This document shows positions 26,452-63,867 of a stretch of DNA of 64,000 bases, piece by piece. A model generated the notes under the pieces. That model worked only from the letters and a program-made list of their open reading frames with translations. It had not been told where the DNA came from and searched no databases. The position numbers and the translations under genes were made by a program. Position 1 is the first letter of the stretch. Each line of letters begins with the position of its first letter. This stretch comes from Xestospongia bergquistia (Eukaryota > Porifera > Demospongiae > Haplosclerida > Petrosiidae): positions 3,953,001 through 4,017,000 of the forward strand of contig OZ014411.1 of NCBI GenBank assembly GCA_963965975.1. Reading direction: 5' to 3'.

Positions 26452-27690
26452 GAGTAAGTGAATTGAACCTAAAACCAAAAAAGAGGTAGAGCAGAGACAA
26501 CAGGAAAATTTAACTTTAGATGAATTCTGTTTATGCAGCAAGAACACATGTATTAAAATAAATTAGTTGACTAAATGATCATTTATGGCATGCATAATAG
26601 ATGATCAGCTACTTGGAACTACGTAATAAACATCACTCTGTTCTTATTACTAATATATTAATGTTGCCTACTGATATTACAAGGTGCAAACATTAGACAA
26701 CAATAAAGACTATGAAGAGGAAGAAACAAATGCCCTACCCTTATTAAAGTGCAAACAGACTAGAATAGGATAGACTATATCGCACATATAGAAGGTAGAT
26801 ATTTTCTAACTAACATAGCTCTAACAAGTAATCAATTACAACTACAAAAACTTATTGTCATTAGTTTATTATTAATAAGAACAGTGTTATGTTTACTATT
26901 GCTTATTACAAGACCTTCCTCTTTGAAAGATAAATCTCTCAATCACAAAAGTTGTTTTACCTATTAGTATGTAAACATGGAAGTTAAAACATTGGTTAAA
27001 ATGTATTAGTGAAGAATATGTCCTATGTAGAGCAGTTTGTTAATTGTCTTCAAGATGAACCTGATGACAAATCTACAATATCTGTTTTAAAGGCTTCCTT
27101 TATGTACTTTTTAAACAATTTTCAAAATCAATGTACATTGTGTCTATGTTAATGAAAATAAAAGAAGAGAATGTGCTACACTCTGAAAATTAGAAGGCTG
27201 AGCTGAATCATAAGGATAAAGTGACAAAACTAAAGATAAATATAAAGAATTGAAAGACTTTTGAATTAATAAACAAGTGAAGATGCAGGTATTCAAGTAC
27301 ATTAATGTAATCTGTTTGTCAATAGACTTTAAATTCTATCAATGAGCTATGTGGATTTATTAAAGTATGATCTATTGTTAATATATGTGCTCTCTAAACA
27401 TTACACTCTACAAAGTGATTGGTTGATTTATCCAATCTATAGTGATTATTGGCACATATAATAATGTGATGAAATACTGAGAAGTAATCAACATCACACT
27501 GTTCTAGTTACTAATATACTATTGTCACCTTCTGATAGGTGTTAACAAGTAGTCAGCAATATAGACTTCCCTATCAAGAGAAAGCAACAGATGACCTACC
27601 CTTGTATATATCTAAAGTACAAACAAACTAGAATAAGGAAATACAATACATTGTATATATATATTAAACCTTTAGCTGACCCTATGGATG
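26452..27690. promoter_or_regulatory. Shared 5' region of GGT-3 and membrane-protein copy 2
   Basis: Close duplicate of 9486-10741. Motif blocks at about 26730-26800 and 27588-27640. No gene. Confidence 0.35.
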
Positions 27691-36726: not shown

Positions 36727-38947
36727 CTAGTAACCTGCTGGTTGACCATCTCTTCTTTTATCACTTACAGCATAAATCACTCCATTATTTTTATAAATTG
36801 CCTGCACAACCCCTATGGGTTTATTATAGAACACATTAACATCATGGTGCAACTCTCTTAGCCTTTTGACATAAGATTCAGGAAAATCTTTTTCAACTCT
36901 CACAACGTTTGGCATAAGTTCATGATGCAATCGTGGGCTTGATACTGATTCATTTAATGACATACCGAACTTGAAAACATTTAATATAACCTGTAGAGTA
37001 TTGATAGAAGTAGTTTAATGGCACAATGTCATGTGACTTTTAAGAGTTAGACAATTATAATGTGTATCAGCTAGCTCACTTGTATATAAGTATGAATGAT
37101 ATACAAGTAAATAGGTTTAATACTATATTGGACTTGAAACAGACCATAATTTGCTAAGATATGCTAACAAGTAATAGTGATGCATTTAATTTCTCATTCA
37201 TATATACCTGTGTAATTGATGTTACTATTCTTTTAGATCCTGTAGCTCCGATAATCATGACTATCTTTCCATTCTTAGCAATTATGGTAGGGACTGCTGA
37301 TGAAAGAGGCCTATGACCACCTTTTAAGTAATTACTTCCAGCGGAAGGATAACCATATGAGTTATGTCTTCCTGGTATGTTAAAGACATGCATTTGATTA
37401 TTAAAGAGAACACCATTTAATAGCACGAAACTACCAAAACTAAAAAAAAACGTTATTAATAAATCTTTTTTTCTTACTAGTAATTTATGGTACTAGTAAT
37501 TGCCACTCCATCACCATGTTCATCCAGAACACAAACATGAGTAGTTCCGAGGGATGGTGAATTATATTGTAGGTTTTCTAAGTAGTGAGTGACATCATAA
37601 GTGGTTGTATCATTAATTTTTCCCTGCATCAGTTTCGATGTTTTAACATCCATCATATCTTTCACAACCTATTAATATATAGATTACGTTTGATAAAAAT
37701 AATGTATGTTACTTCATTGATAGTATCATTAAAGTCAGGATCTCCTAACAACATACGCTGACCAAAGCCAAATTTGAATGCTTCCACAATACGATGATAT
37801 GACTCTGCTCTTAAATTAACTTCAGTCTGAAGGTAACCTAAAAAAAATTTAAGTACACTTTTTAATGATCATTTAGCTTTTACCATTGTCTAGTATATTC
37901 AATATTAGAGCTAACATTGCACCACTAGCTGGGGGAGGAAAACTATGAATTGTCATGTCATCATCAAAATGACTCATTAACACAGGTCGAGTAACTGCAG
38001 TGTAAGTTTTGAAATCTTCAAATGTTAATATGCTATTGTATTGTTCATGCAAATCTTTTACCAACTTTTTAGTGAAGTTACTGTTATAAAAGTAGTCTGG
38101 TCCTTCTTCAGCTATAGCTCTTAAGGTTAATGCTAACTCAGGCTGCTTCAAAGTGTTACCCTCAGTTAATACTTCACCATTAGGATTTATTAATAATTGT
38201 CTGCATAAAGAAGTCATTGTATTTAAAACTACTACACTACACTAACTAACTTTAAATTTGCATAATCTCCTTTTATTAAACCACTGTAAACAATCTTCTT
38301 TTTAATATATTTTGGTATTGATGGTAAAATCTTAACACCTTTTTCAGCTAATTCAATAGATGGCTGAATAAGCTCTGACCAAGATAAACGACCAAACTGT
38401 TGATGAGCTTCATACAATCCTTTGACTTGTCCTGGTACACCAATAGATAATCCACCTATTGTAAATAAATAAATAAATAAATAATTAAGAAACAAATAGA
38501 TAAGATACCTCTTTTTGTAGAGTTCTTAACATTTTTAAATATCTGCATCACTTTTTCAGGAATTACTTGAGGAGCTTTTTCACGAAAATCAATAGCAAAA
38601 GTTTGTTTCATGGATTCATTATAGTACATAAGAAAACCACCACCTCCAATGCCAGCCAAGTGCAAGTTGTGTACCCCTAAACAGAACATAGTTGCTATTG
38701 CTGAGTCGACAGCTGATCCATTTTTCTTTAATATTTCTACTCCTATTTTAGAGCAAATAGGAGAATCACTGGCTACAGCTGCATGTTGATAACCATTTTT
38801 CAATGTCTCATTACAGGAATAATTATCCAATAGTGTGAACCAAAAAGGAACAAATGTTGAAGTGATCATCATCAAAACATTGACAATTGAACAAAAATTT
38901 CCACAAAAAATTCCTGCACATACTTTCTTGCTTTTCAATTGTTCCAT
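36727..38947 (-). CDS. Gamma-glutamyltransferase, copy 4 (GGT-4)
   Basis: Exons 38947-38509, 38455-38251, 38200-37884, 37837-37713, 37668-37478, 37439-37208, 36990-36727; 1773 nt, 590 aa, no stop. Closest to GGT-1: it shares TSTIN, NNQMHVF, PLSSAVPTI, GATGS and the last exon's VFYNKPIGVV. Intron 1 is 53 nt, a run of AAAT repeats. Exon 4 uses a TTTTAG acceptor where other copies have TTTCAG. Upstream, the 5' flank is fused to a GGT exon-1 relic at about 38985. Confidence 0.9.
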
Positions 38948-38984
38948 GACTAAGTGAATTGAACCTAAAACCAAAAAAGAGGTA

Positions 38985-39022
38985 GAGCAATTTATCCATG
39001 AATAGGTGAATTGAACCACAAT
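38985..39022 (-). pseudogene. GGT first-exon relic fused to the GGT-4 5' flank
   Basis: AATTTATCCATGAATAGGTG follows directly on GAGGTAGAGC of the GGT-4 leader. In blocks 2 and 5 the two are separated by a longer spacer, so a deletion joined the true 5' flank to the relic. Confidence 0.45.
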
Positions 39023-39509
39023 GCACATGTAGTTGTAACTGACTGATTGTTACAGCTATGAGATTCTGTGTAATGTATGAGTTGTTAAGGCAAAGACACC
39101 TTCTATATGTACAATGTGGTCTATTTCCTTTCTGTGCTCTATTTATTAAACAAGGGTAGGGCATTTGTTGATTCCTCTTGATAGGGAAGTCTATATTACT
39201 GTCCTTATTGTTTGCAAATTGTCACATCCTAATGGACATGTAATTGTAAGTCAATATGTTTCTACTAAAATACTTTTTCTTGATTACACATGAGTAATTA
39301 TGTTCACACTTAGTTAGTGATAATGTCAGTTTAAGTGACAGGTTTTACTTATTGCTAGTCATTCCTATTGCCATTTATTTGCCCTTGTTTTTTGATGATA
39401 CTTAGAATATTCCATTATACTCTGACCTATGATGTATATGTGTTACTAAAATAAAAAAACAATATCACGTGCACCAATTTCTGTAAATGGCTGCAATTAA
39501 TCTTTAATG

Positions 39510-40435: not shown

Positions 40436-43077
40436 TATACTAAATCTACATTCTCAATCACACTTCTTCTCTCACCTACCAACATAGAACTTCTCCTATT
40501 ATCAATAAAAGCAAGGAATTTCAACCTTACTATTGGTACTTTCTATCGTCCTCCCAATTGTCCTTGTGATTTAGACGTCTTACTCGATTTTCTCTCTAGC
40601 TTGCCACCTCAGCAGCTACTCAATCTCGCTCTCTTGGGTGACTTTAATATTAATTATCTACAGGAGTCTCCTCCCACGCAGAAACTTAAACTCTTTGCAA
40701 ACTTATTTAATTTGAGTCAAAGAAACTACTCGTGTATTGTGTTCAGGTTCTTCTTCCCTGATTGATCTGGTGTTTGTCCCTTCCGATCTTATCTCCAACT
40801 CCTGTCATGTCTTACCTCCTGTCTCAACTTCTGACCATATATTAATTCTATCCTTTTTAAAATTTGTCCAAGTGTTTCTGCTGACATTGATCTTCCTGGT
40901 CCTAGTCGTAGGTGGGTGTATGATCAAGCTGACTTTGAGTCTGCTAACCTCCTCCTTTCTTCCATACCTTGGGACTCACTACTCTCTGATTCCGATGTTA
41001 ATTATATCTGGTCCATATTTAAAGAGGTTTTTCTTAATATTATGAACATAACTATTCCCACTAAAGTCAGTTATGCCACAACACATCCTCCTTGGATTAA
41101 CAAAGCTTTTCTATCCAAGGTCAAGAAACGCAACCACTTATTTGCAAGAGCGAAACACACTAGTTCTACTTCTTAATGATCTGCTTACAGAAAGCAGTGT
41201 AATAGCACCACCCTTTCACTTCTATGCCATTTAAAGAAACAATTTTTTAATCATTTATCCCTCTCACCCTCCCCTCGATCTTTTTGGTCATCTGTCAAAA
41301 AGCTTACTCAAAAGCAAAACCAAATCCCTACACTCCATCACAATGATATTTCTGCCTCCACCTCTGATGCCAAAGCCAACCTCCTTAATAATTTTTTTGC
41401 TCAGAGTTTTAATCCTTGTACAAGCTCTCCTTCATGTCTCTCTCACTCTCTTGAATTCAGTGATCCTCCTCCTTATCTACTTTGTACTCCTGAACAAGTC
41501 TTACATCTTATTCATCAACTACCAACAGACACTTCACCTGGCCCTGATGGTATTTCTTCCAAAATGTTAAAATCCACTACCTACTCTATTTCACATCCAC
41601 TTTCACTTCTATTCAATCAGTCTATCTCTTTTGGAGCCTTCCCATCTGAATGGAAATGCTCACATATAACTTCTATTTCAAAATCTACTTCACCTTTATC
41701 ACCATCGTGTTATCGTCCTATTTCTCTCTTATCTCTTGTAAGTAAGCTGTTGGAAAATATGGATGCACAACTTCTGCTCTCAAAATAACGTTCTCTCCAA
41801 TAGTCAGTTCGGTTTTCGCCCGGGCTTTAGTACTGAATCTGCTCTCATCTCCACAACTCACTTGTGGCACCACACCCTTGATTCCTCCTCTTCTATCTGT
41901 GCTGTCTTCTTTGATCTTAGCAAAGCTTTTGATTCCATTCCTCATTCTCCTTTGCTAGACTCTCTTTCTTCTCTTCATCTCCCTCTAATCCTACTTCACT
42001 GGTTTCTCTCTTACTTAAGTAATTGTTCTCAACAAGTTGTGGTAAATGGAGTTATCTCTGACAGTACTCTTGTCACTTCAGGAGTTCCTCAGGGCTCTAT
42101 TCTAGGCCCACTCTTGTTTATTTTATACATTAATGATATCTCAAAACTCACACTCTCCTCTTCTACTAAACTAATCCTCTATGCCGATGACATTCTGTTA
42201 TCACCCCATTCTCATCGAGCTCTGATTTCACCGCCATTCAAATTGACATCAACAAAACAAAATACATGCTTATTTCCAGGAAGAGTCAATAATTTCTATC
42301 CTCTTTACCTCCTCTTTTCCTGAACTTTTCTACCATTGAACATATTTACTCTTACAAGTACCTTGGAGTTGTTATCAATAGCAACCTTTCTTGGTCTCCT
42401 CACATCTCTTTTGTGTGCTCCAAGTCTTGTAAAATTCTTGGCTACATCTTTCGTAACTTTTATCGCTTCTCCTCTCCATCATCACTTTTTACATTATACT
42501 CTTCGCTAGTTCTTCCACACCTATCTTACTGTTCATCTCCTTGGGATCCTCATACTAAATCTGATATTAAATGTCTTGAAAGCATCCAAAAATTTGCACT
42601 TAGAATGTGTTCTAAACAGTGGCACTCTAACTATGACAGAAACCTTGAACTTTTCAATCTTGTCCCCTTATCCACTCGAAGAGCTATTTCTAAACTTACT
42701 CTTCTCTTTAAATTTATGAGTGGTATCACTTTTCTTCCAAATGATATTTTATCACTTCAACCTCCTCCTCCAAGACCTTCCAGATACTACCACACTAACA
42801 ACATCTCAATCCCCTTTTACCATTCATCTGCTGCCTTTTACTCTTTCATTCCTTCTTCTTCTTCTCTCTGGAATTCTCTGCCTCATGAAGTTAAATCATG
42901 TGACTCAATTTCAATTTTTAAATCAAAACTAAAAGATTATTTTCACCATTGACACCAGTATATGTATGTGTATATCTATTTATTATTTAAGACACTTTAT
43001 CTGATTATTGTTCCATATTTGTGCACTCATTCTATTAGCATATGCTATTGAGTGTTTTATTTGTGAAATAAAAAAAA
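40436..43077 (+). mobile_element. 5'-truncated non-LTR retrotransposon (CR1/L2/jockey-like LINE)
   Basis: Reading through several frameshifts, the endonuclease C-terminal half shows GTFYRPP, LLGDFNI and STSDH. The reverse transcriptase shows SPGPDGISSKML, YRPISLLS, FFDLSKAFDSIPH, GVPQGSILGPLLFILYINDI and ILYADDILL. The thumb/C-terminal region shows LGYIFRNFYR and LVLPHLSYC, ending IFKSKLKDYFHH-stop at 42952. The 3' UTR is about 125 bp and ends TGTGAAATAAAAAAAA. ATGTA flanks both ends (40431-40435 and 43078-43082), and the empty site is visible at 22386. The endonuclease N-terminus is missing and the ORF is broken, so it is dead. Clade is inferred from motif style. Confidence 0.88.
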
Positions 43078-45107: not shown

Positions 45108-47327
45108 CTAGTAACCTGCTGGTTGACCATCTCTTCTTTTATCACTTACAGCATAAATCACTCCATTATTTTTGTAAATAGCCTGCACAACCCCTATGGG
45201 TTTATTATAGGAAACATTAACATCATGGTGCCACTCTCTTAGCCTTTTGACATAAGATTCAGGAAAATCTTTTTCAACTCTCACAACATTTGGAATAAGT
45301 TCATGATGCAACCGTGGACTTGATACTGACTCATTTAACGACATACCAAACTTGAAAACATTTAATATAACCTGTAGAGTATTGATAGAAGTAGTTTAAT
45401 AGCATAATGTCATGTGACGACTGTTAAGAGTTGGACAATTATAATGTGTATCAGCTAGCTCACTTGTATATCAGTATGAATGATATACAAGTAAATAGTT
45501 GTAATATTATATTGGACTTGAAACAGACCATAATTTGCTAAGATATGCTAACAAGTTATAGTGATGCATTTAATTTCTCATTCATATATACCTGTGCAAT
45601 TGATGTTACTATTCTTTTAGATCCTGAAGCTCCGATAATCATGACCATCTTTCCATTTTTAGTAATTATGGTAGGGACTGCTTCTGAAAGAGGTCTGTCA
45701 CCACCTTTTAAGTAATTACTTCTAGCAGGAGGATAATCATATGAGTTATGTCTTCCTGGTATGTTAAAGACACGCATGTGATTATTAAAAAGAACACCAT
45801 TTAATAGCACGAAACTACCAAAACTAACAAAAACATTATTAATAAATCTTTTTTTCTTACTAGTAATTTATACTACTAGTAATTGCCACTCCATCACCAT
45901 GTTCATCCAGAACACAAACATGAGTAGTTCCAAGGGAAGGTGGATTATATTGTAGGTTTTTTAAGTAGTAAGTCTCATCATAAGTGGTTGTATCATTAAT
46001 TTTTCCCTGCATCAGTTTCGATGTTTTAACATCCATCATATATTTGACAACCTATTAAATATAAATACTATGTTCGATAAAATTAATGTAGCTTACTTCA
46101 TTGATAGTATCATTGAAGTCAGGATCTCCTAACAACATACGCTGACCAAAGCCAAATTTGAATGCCTCAACAATACGATGATATGCCTCTGCTCTTAAAT
46201 TAACTTCAGTCTGAAGGTAACCTGAAAAAAATATAAGTAAACTTTTAAATGATCAATTAGCTTTTACCATTATCTAGTATATTCAATATTAGAGCTAACA
46301 CTGCACCACTAGCTGGGGGAGGAAAACTATGAATTGTCATGTCATCATCAAAACGACTCATTAACACAGGTCGAGTAACTGCAGTGTAAGTTTTGAAATC
46401 TTCAAATGTTAATATGCTATTGTATCGTTCATGCAAATCTTTTACCAACTTTTTAGTGAAGTTACTGTTATAAAAGTAGTCTGGTCCTTCTTCAGCTATA
46501 GCTCTTAAGGTTAATGCTAACTCAGGCTGCTTCAAAGTGTTACCCTCAGTTAATACTTCACCATTAGGACTTATTAATAATTGTCTGCATAAAGAAGTCA
46601 TTGTATTTAAAACTACTAAACTACACTAACTAACTTTAAATTTGCATAATCTCCATTCATTAAACCACTGTAAACAATCTTCTTTTTAATATATTTTGGT
46701 ATTGATGGTAAAATCTTAACACCTTTTTCAGCTAATTCAATAGATGGCTGAATGAGCTCTGACCAAGATAAACGACCAAACTGTTGATGAGCTTCATACA
46801 ATCCTTTGACTTGTCCTGGTACACAAATAGATAATCCACCTATTGTAAATAAATAAATAATTAATTAAGAAACAAATATATAAGATACCTCTTTTTGTAG
46901 AGTTCTTAACATTTTTAAATATCTGCATCACTTTTTCAGGAATTACTTGAGGAGCTTTTTCACGAAAATCAATAGCAAAAGTTTGTTTCATAGATTCATT
47001 ATAGTACATAAGAAAACCACCACCTCCAATGCCAGCCAAGTGAAAATTGTGTACCCCTATACAGAACAAAGTTGCTATTGCTGAGTCAACAGCTGATCCA
47101 TTTTTCTTTAATATTTCTACTCCTATTTTAGAACAAATAGGAGAATCACTGGCTACAGCTGCATGTTGATAACCATTTTTCAATGTCTCATTACAGGAAT
47201 AATTATCCAATAGTGTGAACCAAAAAGGAACGAATGTTGAAGTGATCATCATCAAAACATTGACAATAGAACAAAACTTTCCACAAAAAATTCCTGCACA
47301 TACTTTCTTGCCTTTCAATTGTTCCAT
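45108..47327 (-). CDS. Gamma-glutamyltransferase, copy 5 (GGT-5)
   Basis: The label GGT-5 is the array position, not mammalian GGT5. Exons 47327-46889, 46839-46635, 46584-46268, 46221-46097, 46051-45861, 45823-45592, 45371-45108; 590 aa, no stop. Pocket residues: TSSIN, NNHMRVF, PLSEAVPTI (second oxyanion-hole serine replaced by Glu, shared only with GGT-6), GASGS. Intron 1 is 49 nt. It sits between two repeat blocks with no helicase partner. Confidence 0.9.
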
Positions 47328-47479
47328 GAGTAAGTGAATTGAACCTAAAACCAAAAAAGAGGTAGAGCAGAGACATCAGGAAAATTTAACTTCAGGTGAA
47401 TTCTGTTTATGCAGCAAGAACACATGTATTAAAATGAATTAAGTACATATTAAACATCACTCTGTTCTTATTACTAATA

Positions 47480-51043: not shown

Positions 51044-53258
51044 CTAGTAACCTGCTGGTTGACCATCTCTTCGTTTATCACACACAGCATAAATCATTCC
51101 ATTATTTTTATAAATAGCATGCACAACCCCTAGGGTTTTATTATAGGACACATTAACATCATGGTGCCACTCTCTTAGCCTTTTGATATAAGATTCAGGA
51201 AAATCTTTTTCAACTCTAACAATGTTTGGAATAAGTTCATGATGCAATCGTGGGCATGATACTGATTCATTTAATGACATACCGAACTTGAAAATATTTA
51301 ATATAACCTGTAGAGTATTAATAGAAGTAATTTAATGGTATAATGTCATGTGACTGTTAAGAGTTGGACAATTATAATGTGTATCAGCTAGCTCACTTGT
51401 ATATCAGTATGAATAATATACAAATACATAGGTGTTAATACTATATTGGACTTGAAACAGACCATAATTTGCTAAGATATGCTAACAAGTAATAGTGATG
51501 CATTTAATTTCTCATTCATATATACCTGTGCAATTGATGTTACTATTCTTTTACCTCCTGAAGCTCCGATAATCATGACTATCTTTCCATTTTTAGTAAT
51601 TATGGTAGGGACTGCTTCTGAAAGAGGTCTGTCACCACCTTTTAAGTAATTACTTCTAGCGGGATGATAACCATATGAGTTATGTCTTCCTGGTATATTA
51701 AAGACACGCATATGATTATTAAAGAGAACACCATTTAATAGCACGAAACTACCAAAACTAACAAAAACATTATTAATAAATCCTTTTTTTCTTACTAGAA
51801 ATTTATGCTACTAGTAATTGCCACTCCATCACCATGTTCATCCAGAACACAAACATGAGTAGTTCCAAGGGAAGGTGGATTATATTGTAGGTTTTTTAAG
51901 TAGTAAGTCTCATCATAAGTGGTTGTATCATTAATTTTTCCCTGCATTAGTTTCGATGTTTTAACATCCATCATATATTTGACAACCTATAAAATATAAA
52001 TACTATGTTCGATAAAATTAATGTAGCTTACTTCATTGATAGTATCATTGAAGTCAGGATCTCCTAAAAACATATGCTGACCAAAGCTAAATTTGAATGC
52101 CTCAACAATACGATGATATGCCTCTGCTCTTAAATTAATTCCAGTCTGAAGGTAACCTGAAAAAAATTTAAGCAAACTTTTTAATGATCAATTAACTTTT
52201 ACCATTATCTAGTATATTCAATATTAGAGCTAACACTGCACCACTAGCTGGGGGAGGAAAACTATGAATTGTCATGTCATCATCAAAACGACTCATTAAC
52301 ACAGGTCGAGTAACTGCAGTGTAAGTTTTGAAATCTTCAAATGTTAATATGCTATTGTATTGTTCTCGCAAATCTTTTACCAACTTTTTAGTGAAGTTAC
52401 TGTTATAAAAATAGTCTGGTCCTTCTTCAGCAATAGCTCTTAAAGTTAATGCTAACTCAGGCTGCTTCAAAGTGTTACCCTCAGTTAATACGTCACCATT
52501 AGGACTTATTAATAATTGTCTGCATAAAGAAGTCATTGTATTTAAAACTACTAAACTACACTAACTAACTTTAAATTTGCATAATCTCCATTCATTAAAC
52601 CACTGTAAACAATTTTCCTTTTAATATATTTTGGCATTGATGGTAAAATCTTAACACCTTTTTCAGCTAATTCAATAGATGGCTGAATAAGCTCTGACCA
52701 AGATAAACGACCAAACTGTTGATGAGCTTCATACAATCCTTTGACTTGTCCTGGTACACAAATAGATAATCCACCTATTTTAAATAAATAAATAATTAAG
52801 AAACAAATATATAAGATACCTCTTTTTGTAGAGTTCCTATCATTTTTAAATATCTGCATCACTTTTTCAGGAATTACTTGAGGAGCTTTTTCACGAAAAT
52901 CAATAGCAAAAGTTTGTTTCATAGATTCATTATAGTACATAAGAAAACCACCACCTCCAATGCCAGCCAAGTGAAAATTGTGTACCCCTATACAGAACAA
53001 AGTTGCTATTGCTGAGTCGACAGCTGATCCATTTTTCTTTAATATTTCTACTCCTATTTCAGAGCAAATAGGAGAATCACTGGCTACAGCTCCATGTTGA
53101 TAACCATTTTTCAATGTCTCATTACAGGAATAATTATCCAATAGTGTGAACCAAAAAGGAACGAATGTTGAAGTGATCATCATCAAAACATTGACAATAG
53201 AACAAAACTTTCCACAAAAAATTCCTGCACATATTTTCTTGCTTTTCAATTGTTCCAT
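51044..53258 (-). CDS. Gamma-glutamyltransferase, copy 6 (GGT-6)
   Basis: Array position, not mammalian GGT6. Exons 53258-52820, 52774-52570, 52519-52203, 52156-52032, 51986-51796, 51757-51526, 51307-51044; 590 aa, no stop. Pocket: TSSIN, NNHMRVF, PLSEAVPTI, GASGG. Exon 4 encodes FKFSFGQHM where GGT-1 has FKFGYGQRI. Intron 1 is 45 nt and stop-free, so exons 1 and 2 read as one frame. Last gene of the array before it breaks off at about 54465. Confidence 0.9.
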
Positions 53259-54465
53259 GACTAAGTGAATTGAACCTAAAACCAAAAAAGAGGTAGAGCA
53301 GAGACATCAGGAAAATTTAGCTTCAGGTGAATTCTGTTTATGCAGCAAGAACACATGTATTAAAATGAATTAGTTGACTAAATGATCATTTATGGCACAC
53401 ATAATACATGATCAGCTACTTGGAACTATGTAATAAACATCACTCTGTTCTTGTTACTAATATATTAATGTTGCCTACTGATATAACAAGGTGCAAACAT
53501 TAGACACCAATAAAGACTATGAAGAGGAAGAAACAGATGCCCTACCCTTCTTAAAGTGCAAACAGACTAGAATAGGATAGACTATATCGCACATATAGAA
53601 GGCAGCTACTACCTAACTAATACAGCTCTAACAAGTAATCAATCACAACTACAAAAAGTAATTGTCATTAGTTTATTATTAAGAACAGTGTTATGTTTAC
53701 TATTGCTCATTACAAGACCTTCCTCTTTGAAAGATAAATCTCAATCACAAAAGCTGTTTTACTTATTAGTATGTAAACATGGAAGTTAAAACATTGGTTA
53801 AAATGTATTAGTGACGAATATGTCCTGTGTAGAGTAGTTGTTCATTGCCTTCAAGATGAACCTGATGACAAATCTACAATGTCTGTTTTAAAGGCTTCCT
53901 TTATGTACTTTTTAAACAATTTTCAAAATCAATGTACATTGTGTCTATGTTAATGAAAATAAAAGAAGACAATGTGCTACACTCTGAAAATTAGAAGGCT
54001 GAGCTGAATCATAAGAATAAAGTGACAAAACTAAAGATAAATATAAAGAATTGAAAGACTTATAAATTAATAAACAAGTGAAGATGCAGGTATTCAAGTA
54101 CATTAATGTAATCTGTTTGTCAATAGACTTTAAATTCTATCAATGAGCTATGTGCATTTATTTAAAGTATGATCTATTGTTAATACATATGCTCTCTAAA
54201 CATTACACTCTACAAAGTGATTGGTTGATTTATCTAATCTATAGTCATTATTGGCACATATACTAATGTGATGAAATACTGAGAAGTAATCAACACCACA
54301 CTGTTCTAGTTACTAATATACTATTGTCACCTTCTGATAGGCGTTGACAGGTAGTCAGCAATATAGACTTCCCTATCAAGAGAAAACAACAGATGCCCTA
54401 CCCTTGTTTATATCTAAAGTACAAACAGACTAGAATAAAGAAATACAATACATTGTATATATTAG
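53259..54465. promoter_or_regulatory. GGT-6 5' region and truncated stub of the membrane-protein unit; array end
   Basis: Duplicate of 9486-10700 with motif blocks at about 53530-53600 and 54390-54442. Homology stops at ACATTGTATATATTAGACTA, where other copies continue into the membrane-protein remnant. The third membrane-protein copy is absent, and this marks the right edge of the segmental array. Confidence 0.5.
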
Positions 54466-55059: not shown

Positions 55060-55104
<45 letters not shown>

Positions 55105-55187
55105 CATACATTATATGTGTGTATATGTATGATATATCTATATATACATTTACATGTGCATACATACACACAAAATATATATATATA
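54466..55187. repeat. Unique AT-rich spacer with compound TA/TG microsatellites
   Basis: 54466-54825 shows no gene and no similarity to the array. A TA run lies at 54829-54851. A compound (TA)n/(CA)n/(CATA)n tract occupies about 54957-55187. Apparent ORFs in it are low-complexity MYIYIY translations and are not genes. Confidence 0.7.
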
Positions 55188-55635
55188 GGGTTATCACTAA
55201 AAAATTAAAGTTTCTTTATATGTTCTGTTTACTCCTTACAGTTGTAGTCCACCTATGACTAATTACAGATCCAGTAAAATTTCTGCAGTTCTTCGTTTGG
55301 TTGTGAAAAAAATTAATAATAATAATTTAATCAATTTACTCATAATTGGAATTTACGGTATACCTCGAGGGCGACTATTCAACTCGACTCTAATCTACTT
55401 TACCGGCAGTTCTCGTGAAAAAAAAATTCATACCCTTCTTACTTAATCACAGGAGAGTTATTGGTAAGCAATAATAACTATATTGGCGCATTTTTATGTT
55501 TCTCGATATTTCATTTTAGAATTTTATTCCTACAAAACTTCAATCAATTGGGGGCATTTTGCACTCATAAGGAAGTACTATTAGTCACCTTACTACTACA
55601 AAGTAATTGTCTAGTATCTTGGTGATTTGTCATCT
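55188..55635 (+). repeat. Left terminal inverted repeat
   Basis: Pairs with 60107-60548. Shared blocks include CTCGAGGGCGACTATTCAAC, CACGAGAACTGCCGG (as complement) and AAGGAAGTACTATTAGTCAC. Near its inner end the left arm has TG or CA where the right arm has CG. Confidence 0.92.
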
Positions 55636-55869
55636 AAATTTGGTAATATTATTTTGATACCCCACCCACATATTATTATTAATACTTTACAGTACACAGA
55701 ATAAACAGTAACATAATATGGGTAGTAGTTAATATGAAAGTACTATCTCTATATGCCCCTGTATACGGTTTTTGGGATGTGCCTGACATAATTACACAGT
55801 CACTATACTGAATTCAGTTTTACGAGTCAATGGCAGGATATTAGAATTTATGCATTTATGTAATTATTT

Positions 55870-56844
55870 ATGAGTAGGTATACTATCATTATGATGCCTA
55901 TTGCTTTGTCGGTGTTGAGGGAAAGGAAATTGTCAGGAGAAACTAGAGGACTAGACTACTATGATCCAATGGATTTGCTAGCCTTAACACATGGTTGCAG
56001 CATTAAATTAATCAGAAATATGGGGAAACGAACACCGATTGAAAATATTGACAGTCAGCATGGATACCCTACAATAGCTAGCTTCAACATTAATTACAAG
56101 AATCGACAGAATATATCGGAAACTCCATCTCATGTTTTAGTAGCTGATAATGAAGGACCAGTAGATATATATGACATCCAAAAAAAGACTTTGTTGCGTA
56201 GCTATCTTGAACACGGGTCAAGAGTTACTGGACTTACCTGGTATGATTGGTATGAAAAACAGTCATTTATCTCCTGTTCTGCTGATGGAACTGTTCGTTT
56301 ATATGATCTTACAAACTGCCATAGTCGTCTTTGTCTTAATCTTTCTGCCAGTACATGTGGGGTCCACATCAGCCCATTTTCTCCCCACTTAATTGCATTT
56401 GGGACAACAAAAGGCAAGTTCTATATCTATGACATACGAAATACAAGTAGTCCGTTCATTGAAGCTAAGGCACATTTGAAGACAGTTAGTAATACTCTAT
56501 TTGTGTCCGAGTTCGAGTTGCTCACAATAGGCACTGATAACACAGCAAAACTATGGGATTTGAACCGAACTGTTTGTACAACTACTTTTGAAGATAATAC
56601 ACATGAATCATGTTTTGTTGGTGTTGACAGCTTCAGTGATTTCGTTGCTCTGGGTGGTGAAAATAATTTTGTTCTTATATATACAAAATATGCTTCAAAA
56701 AGTATTATCACCAAAGCGCTTCATCCATCATCAACATATGTTTGTGGTTGTGTTCTTGTACCTAAAGATGAATCAATACAGTTAATTGCAGCAGGAAATC
56801 AAGATCACCTTGTATATTTCCAACTAGACATTGTGGAACATTAG
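55870..56844 (+). CDS. COP1-like WD40 propeller protein encoded inside a transposon
   Basis: Single uninterrupted 324-codon ORF. It resembles the C-terminal seven-blade WD40 domain of COP1/RFWD2, which recruits Val-Pro degron substrates to the COP1-DET1-CUL4 E3 ligase. Diagnostic stretches: FISCSADGTVRLYDL (residues about 136-150), HLIAFGTTKGKFYIYDIRN (177-195), KTVSNTLFVSEFELLTIGTD and AKLWDLNR (205-234), SCFVGVDSFSDFVALGGENN (248-267), then LIAAGNQDH. The phrase FVG-x-x-DFVA-x-G-ENN parallels COP1's FVGL-x-x-DYIACGSENN. RING and coiled-coil parts of COP1 are absent, so by itself it would bind substrates or adaptors without E3 activity. Start at 55870 gives the longest frame; a second Met eight codons later is possible. 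It is convergent with the transposase and about 235 bp inside the left TIR. The fold is confident; COP1 kinship is from memory of that sequence. Confidence 0.82.
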   Translation: MSRYTIIMMPIALSVLRERKLSGETRGLDYYDPMDLLALTHGCSIKLIRNMGKRTPIENIDSQHGYPTIASFNINYKNRQNISETPSHVLVADNEGPVDIYDIQKKTLLRSYLEHGSRVTGLTWYDWYEKQSFISCSADGTVRLYDLTNCHSRLCLNLSASTCGVHISPFSPHLIAFGTTKGKFYIYDIRNTSSPFIEAKAHLKTVSNTLFVSEFELLTIGTDNTAKLWDLNRTVCTTTFEDNTHESCFVGVDSFSDFVALGGENNFVLIYTKYASKSIITKALHPSSTYVCGCVLVPKDESIQLIAAGNQDHLVYFQLDIVEH

Positions 56845-56904
56845 AATGTTAAATTAATGTTATATTCATTAAATTATGTAATATTAAATTAATGATAATA
56901 ATTA

Positions 56905-57172
56905 AGTTACGCAAAAAAGAAAGAGAATTGAGAAAGGGAAGAGGAGGACAAAAATGGGAGAAAGATTTCATTTATAAATTTTACTTAGAGGATTGAGAAA
57001 GGAAGAGGACAGAAAATGAGAGATATAACATGTCATTTTTAAATTTAAGTAATTAAGTTATGTAATAAAGAAAGAGGATTGAGAAAGGAAGAGGACAGAA
57101 AAAGCAATAAAGAAAGAATTGAGAAAGGAAGAAATGGAGAGAAAGATATATGTCATTTATAAATTTAAGTAA
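56905..57172. repeat. Purine-rich minisatellite between the convergent transposon genes
   Basis: About four degenerate units built on AAAGAGGATTGAGAAAGGAA plus GAGGACAGAAAA, alternating with TTTATAAATTTAAGTAATTAAGTTA. It fills the interval between the two 3' ends. Confidence 0.7.
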
Positions 57173-60123
57173 TTAAGTTAAAATTTTTAAGTCACCTTGC
57201 AAAAGGTCTTCTATTAAGTTGAAATGAAAAATTTCACTGCTATCTTCGTATTCAATATGGTGCAATTCACCATCATAGTCCGATACAAAACCACTAAACC
57301 ACTGTTCCTCTTCATCATCGACGATAAACTTATGCATGATGGTTTTACCAATAAGTGCATACGGATCACAATCAGTAGTTGAAGAGCATTGTCCTGAAAC
57401 AGGTGAGTCTCTAATTAGTCTTCGAACTTCCTCTATTAACACACTTAAAGGACGCTTACGTCCATTGCTAGTGAAGGTGATCTTAGTTTTTTGCATGAGA
57501 AGCTTCTTTCTAATTCTGACTTGCTCCTTGAGTAAATTCAAAACCTTTGACTCTCGTTTTGCTTTTGGTAAATCTTCACCTTCAATATTACTTAATGCTG
57601 TTTCATACTTAGTGAGTGAGCTGATCAAATGAAGTTTTGACAGTTGTTCTCTTTCATCTGCTTGTTTTTTTCTTAATGTGTCAATTTTTTTTCTTTTTGA
57701 GCATTCTACTTTGTCTCCTTTCAGAAATGAACTTTCGTGTTTTGTTGAAATCTTCTCTAACGTCTTTTCGTTTTTTCATAGCTAACTCAATAATTATTTT
57801 TCTTCTTTCCTCCAGTAAATCATTAAACCACTCCATTGTGTGATTTTTTTTAATTTCAAATAAATTACTTTTAGTGAGCTGCACTAAATTTGGTAACGCC
57901 ATGCAGAGGTAGTTGTTAAGACCCAATATTGATTCCGATAGATCATTGCTCAGTTCTAAATTCTTCAAAACATCTGCTGTCTTGTCATCAACATTCCAAT
58001 AGAGACCATCCGGTAAGAAATCCTTTGCATACTAAGTTTTTCCTTCATAGAAGATGCTCCAGCGACAACTTTTAATAAAATGAACCATCATCAGGTAAGC
58101 TTTGGAAGAGATGTTCTTGAAAACACTCAGAAGCAGAGCAAGTGTGCTTATGGGTTCTCTGATTAAACTTTGTATCATGATAGAGTCTACATTCTGAAGG
58201 AAAAACTTTGAAGTAGCAATTACGTACGATTTCAGGAGATTGTTCTAATTTTTCCAAAAAAATTTTTAGCTCTAAATAGTGTTCTCGCATACTGTATACA
58301 GTCTTTTTAAGTTCTCTGGACTTCGCTAATAAGACCAAGTCAGCGTACACATGATAGTATATTAAAGCATCAAGTTTCAGCAAATCTATAACACAGCTAT
58401 CAGTCAACTTACAAAATACATCTTTCTCCAATTTATTTCCATCGTTAGACTTGTTGGTAAACTCCAGAAATTCAATGGCAGCATTAGAAAGAAAGACAAT
58501 TTTAGTTGCATTGTGAGAAGTCACGAAGTACCTACTTCCAATTTGATGAGAGAGTGATATATTACGACAAGTTTGATAATAAGTTTGGTTATCATCCATT
58601 TGACTCGCACGGTAACTTAAAAAGTCCTGAAATTGAATATGGACTCCATATTCAGGACTTCCATGACTACTAAATAGTTTACAACATTCATAAACAAATG
58701 AATCAATAACTTCCTGCCATTCTATTTGTGCTGTAACAAATGCTTTACGAAGGTTAACTCCTAAATGCATTGCACAGAAACTACGTACAATATCCATACT
58801 TTCACTGCCTGCATAGGAAGTGCTTTTATGTCGTCATCTTTGCATTGTTGTATAAGATCATTCAAGCGTTTCTGCGTAGATGCTGAATCAGAAGTCGAGG
58901 CACAAATCATTGACCAATTCAACATCTTATTATTAGGAATACCTAACTTTTCAGCGAAACATCTAAGCTTCTTAAGTTGATGATCTAAATCTCCAATAAT
59001 TGAGTCAGCTGTGCCATCTGGAACTTCACTAATTGAAAGAACGACACCATTAAAAACAATAGCATTTAATTTATGTTGATTTTTTGTGGTACCATCACTG
59101 TTCAGATATAAATTATCAGCCTCCGATAGCAGTTCAACCTGATGAGCCATACAAACTGTCTTTAGCTCTTCCCTGCGCATGTAATTAGCACAAGTGCTAC
59201 CAGGTAACTGTAAAGTTTCCACGTCAATATCAGGAATAAAAGCCTTAACAACATCTTTTATTATGTTACGTATTTTTCCTGGGGGTATTTGTGAAGCCAG
59301 TAAAGAGTAATAAAGTGCTTGTACTGCAGGTAAGTACTTTTTTCCATCAAAGGTACACGGTGATTGGTCGGTCCTTGAAATGGGTATTTCTTCAGAGTCA
59401 CCATTACATAGAAAGTCTGCGTCCAATTTCTCAAAATCCAATATTGCCAGATTATACTGTTTTTGAAGCCTTTTTATTATTTTGTCCTTTTTCTCTTCAA
59501 TGGTCTTAATATCTTGTTGAAGATTATTTATAACTTCATCCTTTTTACTCACAGTCTTTTTAATGCTATTAATTCTCTTCTTAATGTTCGTATTTTAATA
59601 TGCTTACAGTTTTCACGTCTTTTTACATTTTGCGGTGCATATCGAGCACGTTGATCAATGAATGATGGTACAGCTTCACATATACCAGAAGTACACATCT
59701 CCTGAGTCTCCTCAGTTTGTGATTCGGGACTAAATCCAGGAATAGCTGAAGTGGCATGACACAATTGAAGCTTTCCTAAATGAGTGATAATTGTATCATT
59801 ACAATTTCAATACTATATGGCTTACTAAAGTTTCGAATTCGTGGCCTCCAGATCTTTTCTCGGTATAAAAGTAATGCATCCCCCTCGATTGAAATTTTCC
59901 CTTTTATAGACGGTATAGTTGGGGAAATGATTCTTTTTATGGTCTGAATGAATCGATCTTTTCTGCCAATGTACACACTAGGATATGTACTTTTCACTTC
60001 AGCAATCACTTTCAGTGAATCTCCATCATGAGCATGATAGGCATCAATGAGGAATCCATAAGGGATGCCGGCTCTGCTGGCCGCCATTTTTTTCAAAAAT
60101 CTGCTCAGATGACGAATCACCAA
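57173..60123 (-). pseudogene. Transposase-like gene of the TIR element, frame-disrupted
   Basis: ORFs in different frames line up in order: 60123-59776, 59764-59549, 59552-58761, 58797-58072, 57968-57681, 57628-57173. They match a large uncharacterised family abundant in cnidarian, sponge and echinoderm genomes: QALYYSLLASQIPPGKIRNI, STCANYMRREEL, LNSDGTTKNQHK, VPDGTADSIIGDL, STSDSASTQKRLNDLI, CAMHLGVNLRKAF, NNYLCMALPN. The C-terminus (DPYALIGKTIMHKFIVDDEE onward) looks like a small Tudor/chromo-type barrel ending LLQGDLKIL. Frame changes fall at A-runs near 59560 and 57685, around 58800-58845, and between 58072 and 57968. The first two look like 1-nt homopolymer slips. Short introns could explain some, but obvious splice pairs did not restore the frame. 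The first ORF starts inside the right TIR; its link to the rest is inferred. Catalytic residues not identified. Confidence 0.65.
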
Positions 60124-60548
60124 GATACTAGACGATTACTTCGTAGTAGTAAGGTGACTAATAGTACTTCCTTATGAGCGCAAAATACCCCCAATTAATT
60201 GAAGTTTTGTAGGAATAAAATTCTAAAATGAAATATTGAGCATCATAAAAATGCGCCAATATAGTTATTATCGCTTACCAATAACTCTCCTATGATTAAG
60301 TAAGAAGAGTATGAAGTTTTTTTTTTTCACGAGAACTGCCGGTAAAGTAGATTAGAATCGAGTTGAATAGTCGCCCTCGAGGTATACCGTAAATTCCAAT
60401 TATGAGTAAATTGATTAAATTATTATTATTAATTTTTTTCACAACCAAACGAAGAACTGCAGAAATTTTACTGGATCTGTAACTAGTCATAGGTGGACTA
60501 CAACTGTAAGGAGTAAACAGAACATATAAAGAAAGTTAGTGATAACCC
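60107..60548 (-). repeat. Right terminal inverted repeat
   Basis: Inverted partner of 55188-55635. Keeps CpG-containing forms (ACGAAGTAATCG, GATTCGTCATC in minus orientation) where the left arm has TpG or CpA. Confidence 0.92.
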
Positions 60549-61653
60549 TACTAATATATAATATGTATATATGTATATTTATGTATTATAACAATATAAC
60601 TGACTTTCTTTTCTCCAACATGTAGTTATCAATGGCACATAAATACATTAAGCTGAAAGAATATAACACTTTTTACAGCGTTATATGAATGTTTAGATAT
60701 GTCAGTAACAGTCTGTCTGTCAGGTCAAGTTATAATTCTAATATTGGGAAGATTATTGTTGATTGTGTCTCAGTATATCACTGAAAAAAGTAATTAGTAC
60801 TAATATATGATAATATAAGCTGCATGTAGAAAAATTCTTTTGATAATATTTTGATTACTACTTTACCTTTGGAATTGACTGTCTACCAAATGTTAGAACT
60901 AATTATGACTTTACTATTAGATATAATAGAAACATTTAATAGTTGTAAAAGAAAATTTTGGTAAACAGAAAATTCCAATACAATAGTAACAAAACAGTAT
61001 CAAAGAATTTTGTTACATAGAGTAAGCCACGAGTGATCGTACACAATCGATGATCGAACATGCTCGTGTGCATTCTGCTAACCTGAAGAGAACACTACTG
61101 CCACCAAAGTCTAAAGCAAAGGTCCCTCTACTACTGATATGGCTTTCATCCAATTTGAAGTTTGTATTATAATAATAATAAATTAAAAAGTAAAAATTTC
61201 GAACGCAGGTATGTTCGGTTAATTAGCATAAGTTTTCGATTCCCTCGGTTTTCTTCACACAGCAAGAGCATGAGATGGATTTATTGTAAGCCTAGACATG
61301 TTGTGTCCTTGTACTTTCTGTACAGTGAAATTCAAATGTTTCGAGCGAGTACAGTGCTGATAGCATAGCGCTACAAACGGAGAGGACACGCCCACAAAAT
61401 CAATCACCACGTGGCTGAGAAAAACGTGTTAGAAGGTGAGAGATAAACTTCGCTTTTGTGAAACAATAGAAAGAAAGTGAGTCTAGCGTTTTGTCTTGTG
61501 TCGGCACCTGTACAGCCGACCTAAACTGATAGCTAAAATTGTAGTCTGTGTTTTTCTGATGGATATTTGTCAGTATGATGATGTTATAATCATACAACCA
61601 AATCAAATGGGACAATAATAAAGTATAAGCATGGTTATGGTTGTGTAACCTTG
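60549..61653. other. Intergenic, no supported gene
   Basis: AT-rich. A minus-strand open stretch at about 61155-61020 (KLDESHISSRGTFALDFGGS) could be an exon, but nothing around it supports a gene. 61250-61500 is less AT-rich and might be promoter DNA for the downstream transposase gene. Confidence 0.35.
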
Positions 61654-61992: not shown

Positions 61993-63867
61993 ATGATTCT
62001 TAGTCTACGAAGCAGACCTCTAAGAGAGCGAGTGTACTGTCCTGGTCATAGCCTGAGTCAACTTCCTTCACACAATGTATGCAGCGGTAGACCACTGAAG
62101 TACAAGAACTATGATGAGGAAAAGCTGTTTTCTGCATATGAAGATGTAATATATAAAGGACTGTCCATTAGGAGAGCTGCCATGCAATATGGTGTTCCAA
62201 CAACCACTCTTATGGACAGGGTTTCAGGTCGTGTTCCCTTTGGGAAAAGAAGTGGTCCAGTAAAGTATCTTTCTGACGAGGAGGAAAATGAACTGATTCA
62301 TTTTGTAACCGAGTGTGCAGATGTTGGTTACAGTTACAGTAGGAGAGATGTGATTGCATTGGTTCAAGATGTCCTTACTCGTAAAGGTCTGACGGACGTT
62401 CATGTAAGTCATGGTTGGTGGGAAGGTTTTAAAAAACGACACCCTGAGCTTGTATTACGCAAACCTGAACCACTCTCTCAAGCTCGTGCTTACTGTGCTA
62501 AACCAGAAATCTTAGTAAGATACTTCCAAGAGTTAGAGTCAACTTTGCTTAACAATGATATTATGAATTGTCCATCATTAATATTTAATATGGATGAGAG
62601 TGGGTTTCCACTTGATCCTAAGTCCCCACAAATTGTATGTAAGCGAGGTCAGCAACACCCAAGTGCTATCTCTTCAGGCAACAAGTCACAGATTACAGTT
62701 CTAGCTTGCTGCAATGCAGCTGGTTATGCTATACCTCCACTTGTCATCTTTGATCGAAAAATTCTGAAAGCAGAGCTTACATTTGGAGAGGTGCCTGAAA
62801 CCATGTATGGTTTATCCAGTTCTGGGTGGATTGATAGTGAAATTTTTGACGCTTGGTTTCAGAATCATTTTTTAACCTATGCACCAGCTAGTCGACCACT
62901 TTTACTTGTACTAGATGGTCACTCATCACACTTTAATCCTGCCACCATCAGGAGGGCAGCTGAGGAGAAAGTTATATTGTTTTGCCTTCCTCCTAACACC
63001 ACTCACAAAACACAGCCACTAGACAAGGGGTGTTTTGGTCCTCTCAAGGCATACTGGAGGGAGGAATGCCACAATTACCTCACAGCGAATAGAGGAAAGG
63101 TTATTACCCGTTTTCAGTTTTCTGAGTTATTTGGGAGAGCCTGGAAGAATGGGATGATGATGAAGAACATCATTGGGGGATTTAAGACTACAGGAATATA
63201 TCCTTTCAACCCAGATGAATTAATGCCTGAAAAGCCATCATCTCCTTATAGCCCCTCTTCATTGTGTGAAAGAACTGGTTTAAAATATATTCCACTCTTT
63301 AGCCCAGCCATGTCAAGATATCGAAGAGCATATAGATCACAACCTGAATCTCCAGATTTACCTCCAACTCCTGAATTACCACCCTCAAATTCACCAATTT
63401 CTGACTCACCACCTCCTCATTTACTACCCATAGACTCACAGCTTTCTCATTTACCACCACCTCTTCCAATTAACTTCAGCAGAGAAGAATGTATTTGCTT
63501 TCAGAGAAGAAAGGATGAGGGTTATGACCTCCCTGGTGATAAGAGATACCAGTTATGGCTGAAGCAGCATATTCGTCACTCCACTCCATTAACAGAGGAG
63601 TTGTCATGTGAGTCTTCGATCCATCTTCCCCGTGCTTCAGCAATGTCAACTCTTTTGTCAGAAAAAACTCGAGAAATCAAGCTACCAAAGATGAATCAAA
63701 ACACATCAGCCCGGGTTTTAACTAGTGCTCAAAATTTGAGATTATTAGAAGAAAAGAAGAAGAAGAAGGAAGAGGATTTGAAAGCTAAAGAAAAAAGGAA
63801 GTTAGAAAGAGAAGAAAAGAAAAATCAAAAAGCTCTCTCTGGACAAAGTAAGAATCAACCTGTGTAA
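61993..63867 (+). CDS. Pogo/Tigger-type (DDE_1) transposase, intact
   Basis: 624-aa single ORF. Psq-type helix-turn-helix at about 41-80 (EKLFSAYEDVIYKGLSIRRA, QYGVPTTTL). CENP-B-type DNA-binding helix-turn-helix at about 93-165 (LSDEEENEL, SHGWWEGFKKRHPEL). DDE catalytic domain: FNMDESGF (D201), LVLDGHSSHFN (D308), TTHKTQPLDKGCFGPLKAYW (D344); the 35-residue spacing fits pogo-like DDD enzymes. A proline-rich linker follows at about 425-500, with a Lys/Glu-rich tail at 590-624. Sequence TGTCTGTGTAG just before the ATG could be a splice acceptor, so a 5' non-coding exon is possible. No inverted-repeat ends were found around it within the window. It could be a live element missing its right end here, or a domesticated gene. 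Confidence 0.9.
   Translation: MILSLRSRPLRERVYCPGHSLSQLPSHNVCSGRPLKYKNYDEEKLFSAYEDVIYKGLSIRRAAMQYGVPTTTLMDRVSGRVPFGKRSGPVKYLSDEEENELIHFVTECADVGYSYSRRDVIALVQDVLTRKGLTDVHVSHGWWEGFKKRHPELVLRKPEPLSQARAYCAKPEILVRYFQELESTLLNNDIMNCPSLIFNMDESGFPLDPKSPQIVCKRGQQHPSAISSGNKSQITVLACCNAAGYAIPPLVIFDRKILKAELTFGEVPETMYGLSSSGWIDSEIFDAWFQNHFLTYAPASRPLLLVLDGHSSHFNPATIRRAAEEKVILFCLPPNTTHKTQPLDKGCFGPLKAYWREECHNYLTANRGKVITRFQFSELFGRAWKNGMMMKNIIGGFKTTGIYPFNPDELMPEKPSSPYSPSSLCERTGLKYIPLFSPAMSRYRRAYRSQPESPDLPPTPELPPSNSPISDSPPPHLLPIDSQLSHLPPPLPINFSREECICFQRRKDEGYDLPGDKRYQLWLKQHIRHSTPLTEELSCESSIHLPRASAMSTLLSEKTREIKLPKMNQNTSARVLTSAQNLRLLEEKKKKKEEDLKAKEKRKLEREEKKNQKALSGQSKNQPV

What the first reader, a model, noticed from the sequence alone, without database searches (positions are those of the whole stretch)
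55870..56844. DNA transposon carries a stand-alone COP1-like WD40 domain
Seen: an intact intronless 324-codon WD40 ORF lies between two terminal inverted repeats of about 445 bp, beside a transposase-like gene. Its blades match the COP1 propeller, including the FVG...ENN blade, but no RING or coiled coil is present. Known: the COP1 propeller binds Val-Pro degrons and Tribbles-type adaptors. Inference: the element captured the propeller, possibly as a retrocopy since it lacks introns, and may use it as a decoy that sequesters substrates or as a way to redirect the host ligase, for instance towards silencing factors.
Basis: partly seen in the sequence, partly recalled or inferred. Interest (0 to 1): 0.85.

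Follow-up and report, generated by a model that had tools for sequence, protein, structure and literature searches.

The report
Transposon carrying a COP1-like propeller gene
A cut-and-paste-type DNA transposon carries, beside its damaged transposase, a heavily changed copy of the substrate-reading domain of a ubiquitin ligase (COP1); the residues COP1 uses to grip its usual targets are mostly replaced, so it looks like a real captured gene whose job is unknown rather than a demonstrated decoy.

Summary
A 324-codon intronless WD40 ORF (55870-56844, +) lies in a 5365-bp TIR transposon (55186-60550), convergent with a transposase gene split over several frames. All 3 two-ended copies found in the 146-Mb genome carry it, with unrelated flanks; one truncated copy lacks that side. 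Six loci with distant transposase relatives (42-47%) show no propeller in the stretches examined, suggesting gain in one sub-lineage. The best solved-structure match is the COP1 propeller (1.6e-26), but identity is about 29% to human and 24% to host COP1, which has introns and keeps the pocket. Of six Val-Pro-pocket residues, K472, Y491, W517 and H578 are replaced, F645 is kept, S425 is not reliably alignable. This speaks against the VP-decoy idea. Between copies dN/dS is about 1 (0.89, 1.41, 1.00): no selection visible since insertion; but so diverged an open frame implies earlier constraint. Origin unresolved. No structure model could be obtained. Verdict: real captured cargo, new variant of a known kind, function inferred only.

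The parts
55186..55640 (+). left terminal inverted repeat, begins TAGGGTTATC
55870..56844 (+). WD40 ORF, 324 aa, diverged COP1-type propeller (seven blades inferred from alignment, no model)
56845..57172 (.). spacer between the two convergent genes with short imperfect repeats (about 56896-57180) of a GGATTGAGAAAGGAAGAGGACAGAAA-like unit
   Evidence: self-matches at 1796-2080 of an excerpt that starts at 55101
57173..60123 (-). transposase-like gene, split over several frames in this copy; holds DGTT, TSDSA and FCAMH motifs that I read as D, D and CxxH of a DDE/D transposase
   Evidence: no Pfam match above cut-off and no PDB match for the relative's frame
60107..60550 (-). right terminal inverted repeat, ends GATAACCCTA

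Best explanation
Shown: this is a cut-and-paste-type TIR transposon that carries, as a second gene, a protein whose nearest described family is the substrate-binding propeller of the COP1 ubiquitin ligase, and it has been moved with the element to at least three loci. Most residues of the Val-Pro pocket are replaced in the ancestor of the copies. Inferred: a sub-lineage of the element captured the coding sequence long ago (as cDNA, or from another host), kept it under selection while it was active, and used it as an adaptor that binds a ligand other than VP motifs, the best guess being the host COP1-DET1 ligase surface or the element's own transposase. In this genome the copies look dead and are decaying. 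I put the capture-and-co-mobilisation part at about 0.9, loss of VP binding at about 0.75, and any one named ligand at no more than 0.2.
For: Same unit at three loci with unrelated flanks, propeller in 3 of 3 two-ended copies found. A 7-bp duplication (CAAAAGG) flanks the C7 copy and another (TCAATAG) flanks a relative, C12_666, whose ends also begin TAGGG. Six loci with relatives of the transposase show no propeller in 7.4-7.7 kb each; best tblastn E 1.3. In C12_666 the interval between transposase frame and TIR is about 500 bp; the present element has about 1.5 kb there with the ORF. COP1 best in PDB; a profile of four COP1 propellers gives 122 bits on residues 88-283; 37 of 80 residues invariant in four COP1 sequences and aligned are kept in the C5 copy. 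Pocket residues replaced: K472, Y491, W517, H578. Pre-insertion constraint: in 300 simulated neutral drifts of this ORF to 50% identity, 0 stayed free of stops, median 7 stops. Of ten COP1 residues named at the DET1 interfaces, E492, E511 and H512 are kept, D525 is E, T494 is P, and the five at 686-691 are changed (one) or gapped (four).
Against: dN/dS between copies is about 1, and the copy-private changes are 29 nonsynonymous (some of them stop changes in C7) to 7 synonymous, so nothing shows that the protein works today. C1 and C5 copies lack a clear 7-bp target duplication. The DET1-interface residues kept include ordinary COP1 invariants, and host COP1 also differs in the 686-691 loop. 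Host COP1 paralogue C13 also has F at Y491 and S at H578, so pocket change occurs in host genes too. No expression data, no second species, no structural model. The first 85 residues align poorly.
Confidence: 0.7

Rival explanations
1. Neutral passenger: the element picked up the reading frame by accident and it never did anything for the element; its divergence accumulated mostly in a donor gene before capture.
For: dN/dS about 1 between copies; the C7 copy has a stop and a frameshift in the ORF; low copy number, 3 two-ended copies found.
Against: Would require a donor COP1-like gene already diverged to 24-29% identity; no such gene was found in this genome outside the element, though the search goes exon by exon and could miss short exons.
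Confidence: 0.25
2. Decoy: the propeller sequesters Val-Pro substrates or Tribbles-type adaptors of host COP1.
For: COP1-type propeller with no RING or coiled coil in the ORF; COP1 partners compete through VP motifs in plants (PMC6745501, passages).
Against: Equivalents of W517, Y491, K472 and H578 are T, N, G and G (D in C5) (the K472 column is poorly aligned); Trp and Tyr are needed for VP binding in Arabidopsis, and changing K472, H578 and Y491 together abolished c-Jun binding by human COP1.
Confidence: 0.06
3. Recent retrocopy of this host's COP1.
For: No introns in the ORF; host COP1 propeller exons are split by several introns. The best of three tested trees puts the ORF beside host COP1.
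Against: Only 24% identical to host COP1 against 51% between host and human COP1; very long branch, and none of the three trees is rejected; no poly-A remnant seen after the stop (by eye).
Confidence: 0.05
4. A host gene that happens to lie between two TIRs and was spread by segmental duplication.
For: None beyond proximity.
Against: About 1.5 kb of flank on each side is unrelated between the three copies; a 7-bp duplication at one.
Confidence: 0.03

Closest known systems
COP1 (RFWD2) C-terminal WD40 propeller, PDB 5igq, 5hqg, 6qto
   Same: Best sequence match; shared RNT..P, VS, TD..KLW, E..FVG and G.ENN positions
   Different: No RING or coiled coil in the ORF, about 29% identity, most VP pocket residues replaced, intronless, inside a transposon
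DNA transposons carrying a captured TET/JBP dioxygenase in fungi (PMC12730594, abstract and section list read)
   Same: DNA transposon lineages with a captured host-type accessory gene
   Different: Cargo is an enzyme with a proposed anti-silencing role, found in many transposon lineages of fungi; here a propeller in one family of one genome
Pack-TYPE transposons of plants (PMC8903248, search listing with start of abstract only)
   Same: Elements that capture host coding DNA
   Different: Described there as non-autonomous; here the same ORF is in every two-ended copy found, beside a (broken) transposase gene
Dada superfamily (PMC3706591, passages)
   Same: 6-7 bp target duplications; DDE transposase with a DxxH motif
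   Different: The Dada-U6 and Dada-U1 families described there have no terminal inverted repeats and sit in small RNA genes; here long TIRs (flanks not searched for RNA genes)

Membership tests
COP1 ubiquitin ligase | COP1-type WD40 domain by sequence | tested here: met
   Best PDB match 1.6e-26 over residues 91-282; 122 bits against a four-sequence COP1 profile. Outer blades align weakly; PDB lacks many WD40 families.
COP1 ubiquitin ligase | N-terminal RING and coiled coil | tested here: not met
   By alignment the ORF starts only some 26 residues before the first blade; no RING pattern in the element in six frames (no positive control).
COP1 ubiquitin ligase | Val-Pro binding pocket | tested here: not met
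   K472, Y491, W517, H578 replaced; F645 kept; S425 not reliably alignable. Sequence only, no model.
TIR (cut-and-paste) DNA transposon | Terminal inverted repeats | tested here: met
   About 445-bp arms, 99% and 94% in two blocks.
TIR (cut-and-paste) DNA transposon | Target site duplication | tested here: inconclusive
   7 bp at the C7 copy and at relative C12_666; not seen at C1 (window) or C5. TA adjoins both ends of all three copies and is here counted as part of the TIR.
TIR (cut-and-paste) DNA transposon | DDE/D transposase | tested here: inconclusive
   D, D and CxxH-like motifs read by eye; no Pfam match above cut-off or PDB match.
Dada superfamily | No TIR, insertion in small RNA genes | tested here: not met
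   Long TIRs. The insertion-site half was not tested.
Pack-TYPE element | Non-autonomous, no transposase gene | tested here: not met
   Transposase gene present though broken.

The most novel reading that the evidence does not exclude
A transposon lineage evolved its own COP1-derived adaptor: a propeller with the VP pocket rebuilt for another ligand but part of the DET1-facing edge kept, which plugs into the host CRL4-DET1-COP1 ligase and redirects it, for instance towards host silencing factors or to control the element's own transposase.
Probability: 0.1. Interest if true: 0.8.

Novelty: new variant of a known kind. Interest (0 to 1): 0.45.

Why it matters
Transposons that carry host-derived accessory genes are known, and some are thought to use them against silencing (PMC12730594, abstract). 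A ubiquitin-ligase substrate receptor as cargo would point to protein degradation as another route by which a transposon could manage its host. The case is testable because the ORF is full length in two copies and makes clear predictions about the pocket. It also exposes a transposase family that I could not assign to any superfamily.

Tried and rejected
Other genomes: scans of viral contigs and of prokaryote genome contigs with the ORF found no relative; no collection of eukaryote genomes was on hand, so selection across species could not be measured. Papers: five searches aimed at transposons carrying COP1, WD40 or ligase genes listed no title on a COP1 propeller in a transposon; only part of the matching papers was listed (10 of 21, 0 of 0, 12 of 263, 0 of 0, 8 of 14), and only open-licence PMC papers are held. 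Searches had other aims (VP pocket, sponge transposons, 7-bp duplications). Transposase family: Pfam gave nothing above cut-off and PDB gave nothing; superfamily left open. Structure: structure prediction was asked for 13 times, 11 with the protein alone and 2 with alignment A1, and answered busy each time, so there is no model and no fold search. A TA target duplication was considered, since TA adjoins the GGG end in all three copies; the 7-bp repeats outside TA in C7 and C12_666 made me count TA as part of the TIR. The tree of six sequences (element protein from residue 85) did not place the ORF: three topologies were compared, best beside host COP1, none rejected (the program warned of too few replicates for the AU test). 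No poly-A remnant seen by eye. One search ended with a formatting error in its simulation part; redone as with a 50% end point instead of 45%. The species was not established.

Full report
1. What is there. The window lies in a eukaryote genome of 146,460,797 bases in 21 contigs (window = C1:3953001-4017000). I did not establish the species; that it is an animal is an impression only. The ORF at 55870-56844 (+) is 324 codons long and open. It sits between inverted arms that match at 99% and 94% in two blocks. Reading the ends of three copies side by side gives an element of 5365 bp, 55186-60550, from TAGGGTTATC to GATAACCCTA.

2. Copies. A protein search of the genome gives three places: C1 (window), C5 (95% identical, open), and C7 (two pieces, with a stop and a frame change). 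A search with the left arm gives seven arms: two each at these three places and one at C1:23243003. Thus 3 of 3 two-ended copies found hold the ORF; the fourth is a fragment with one arm and the start of the transposase, cut before the ORF side. About 1.5 kb of flank on either side has no similarity between the three places. C7 has a 7-bp repeat CAAAAGG on both sides; C1 and C5 show none. Counts are lower bounds by the tool's own note. A looser protein search (E up to 5) adds seven weak matches (best E 0.08), among them host COP1-like exons.

3. The transposase. Frames on the minus strand between 60123 and 57173 match, in four separate pieces, a 776-residue open frame of relative C12_666 (about C12:664384-666711; 36-51% identity by piece). 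The C5 and C7 copies are also split, and C7 has lost a large part. So none of the three two-ended copies shows a whole transposase frame; I take this as decay, though introns could explain some breaks. Motifs DGTT, TSDSA and FC(A/S)MH occur in both and look like D, D and CxxH; a D/CxxH motif is reported for hAT, Kolobok, P, MuDR and Dada (PMC3706591, passages). No Pfam family reached its cut-off and no PDB chain matched the relative's frame. C12_666 has arms of about 606 bp (99%), ends that begin TAGGG, and a 7-bp duplication TCAATAG.

4. The gene is probably an addition. The transposase search gave 11 rows: 4 from the element copies and the fragment, 7 from six further loci at 42-47% identity. 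In 7.4-7.7 kb at each of these six, neither the ORF nor the human COP1 fragment has a match better than E 1.3. In C12_666 about 500 bp lie between transposase frame and arm; in the present element about 1.5 kb lie there, with the ORF. C12_666 is the only one of the six whose two ends I could read, so for the other five absence holds for the stretch examined.

5. What the protein is. The best PDB matches are COP1 chains (RFWD2 1.6e-26, 6qts/6qto 1.3e-25), then RUP2 (5.7e-17), then others. In Pfam, of 31 families the 25 shown are propeller or WD40 models; only the general WD40 repeat reaches its cut-off (30.5 against 27 bits). A four-sequence COP1 profile gives 122 bits over residues 88-283. Identity over aligned columns: human 29%, Arabidopsis 28%, host COP1 24%; human to host 51%. 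Host sequences here are composites of exon frames, so these numbers are approximate. The host COP1 composite matches human COP1 over its 302 residues at 4.8e-97.

6. The pocket. From papers: Arabidopsis Trp467 to Ala disrupts VP binding, Tyr441 to Ala abolishes or greatly reduces it, while Lys422 to Ala still bound HY5 (PMC6745501, passages). In human COP1, S425, F645 and W517 form the pocket, K472 and H578 contact Trib1, and K472G/H578A/Y491G together abolished the interaction with c-Jun (PMC12808801, passages; section 7 read). My numbering of the human chain gave the named letter at all six. The element protein has G at K472, N at Y491, T at W517, G (D in C5) at H578, F at F645; S425 is L in one alignment and a gap in the other. 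The W517 and Y491 positions lie among conserved neighbours (D490, G493; E511, H512, R515); the K472 position is in a poorly aligned stretch. The host's main COP1 keeps all six; host paralogue C13 has F at 491 and S at 578. Windows and C5 copies agree on G, N and T, so the change predates their separation. This is from sequence alone; no model was obtained.

7. Selection. Between copies dN/dS is 0.89 (C1-C5), 1.41 (C1-C7), 1.00 (C5-C7); changes private to one copy are 7 synonymous and 29 nonsynonymous (C7's stop changes counted in), against a neutral expectation of about 28% synonymous, 68% nonsynonymous, 3% stop. So no constraint is visible since the copies separated (2.2-2.7% difference in the ORF). 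On the other hand, neutral drift of this ORF to 50% identity left 0 of 300 simulated frames open (substitutions only), so most of the distance from COP1 must have been travelled under constraint, inside the element or in a donor gene. The window copy has a 9-bp in-frame repeat (WYD) that C5 and C7 lack.

8. Origin. Host COP1 propeller exons are interrupted by introns; the ORF has none. The ORF is not closer to host COP1 than to human COP1. A six-sequence tree puts it on a branch of about 2.4 changes per column (1.56 + 0.84 across the midpoint); of three topologies the one beside host COP1 scores best, but none is rejected. A recent retrocopy of this host's COP1 is unlikely; an old retrocopy or a gain from another species both stand.

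9. Function. Best guess: while active, the element used the propeller as an adaptor for a ligand other than VP motifs. Three COP1 residues at the DET1 interface are kept (E492, E511, H512), one is similar (D525E), one is P (T494), and the five at 686-691 are changed or gapped; host COP1 also differs in that loop. This is thin. A passenger role is the main rival.

10. Comparison. DNA transposons with captured TET/JBP genes are described in fungi (PMC12730594, abstract) and Pack-TYPE elements in plants (PMC8903248, listing). Five searches of open papers aimed at this question, whose lists were partial, showed no title on a COP1 propeller in a transposon. Hence: new variant of a known kind.

Noticed in passing
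host genome C1:15276296, 15357192, 15732574; C4:5814969, 6084839 (L021, L022, L024, L025, L026); also C13:4989189 (L023) and C7:5498914 (L027): COP1-like propeller genes with introns occur as dispersed, similar blocks (91-98% by piece among five, about 78-86% to two more). The block shared by two of them spans 3.8-4.9 kb with abrupt ends and no inverted repeats at the ends. Mobile spread of the host COP1 gene by another route is possible.
   Followed up: partly
L038, L032, L044 (C12:663280-668242) and five other loci: Transposase family matching no Pfam family above cut-off; in C12_666 with long TIRs beginning TAGGG, a 7-bp target duplication and a CxxH-like motif. Superfamily not assigned.
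   Followed up: partly
window 8778-9581, 19776-20483, 25972-26547, 38456-39028, 46794-47354, 52551-53285 (-): Six very similar ORFs in a row; the last is a gamma-glutamyltranspeptidase by Pfam, the others look the same by eye: a tandem gene array beside the transposon.
   Followed up: no
window 61993-63867 (+): Open 624-aa transposase with DDE_1, Psq and Tc5-type DNA-binding domains, next to the element.
   Followed up: no
window 41763-42952 (+): Two ORFs that look like pieces of a non-LTR reverse transcriptase (YADD by eye, not searched).
   Followed up: no
window 56239-56256: 9-bp in-frame duplication in the WD40 ORF (WYD WYE) in this copy, absent from the C5 and C7 copies.
   Followed up: yes
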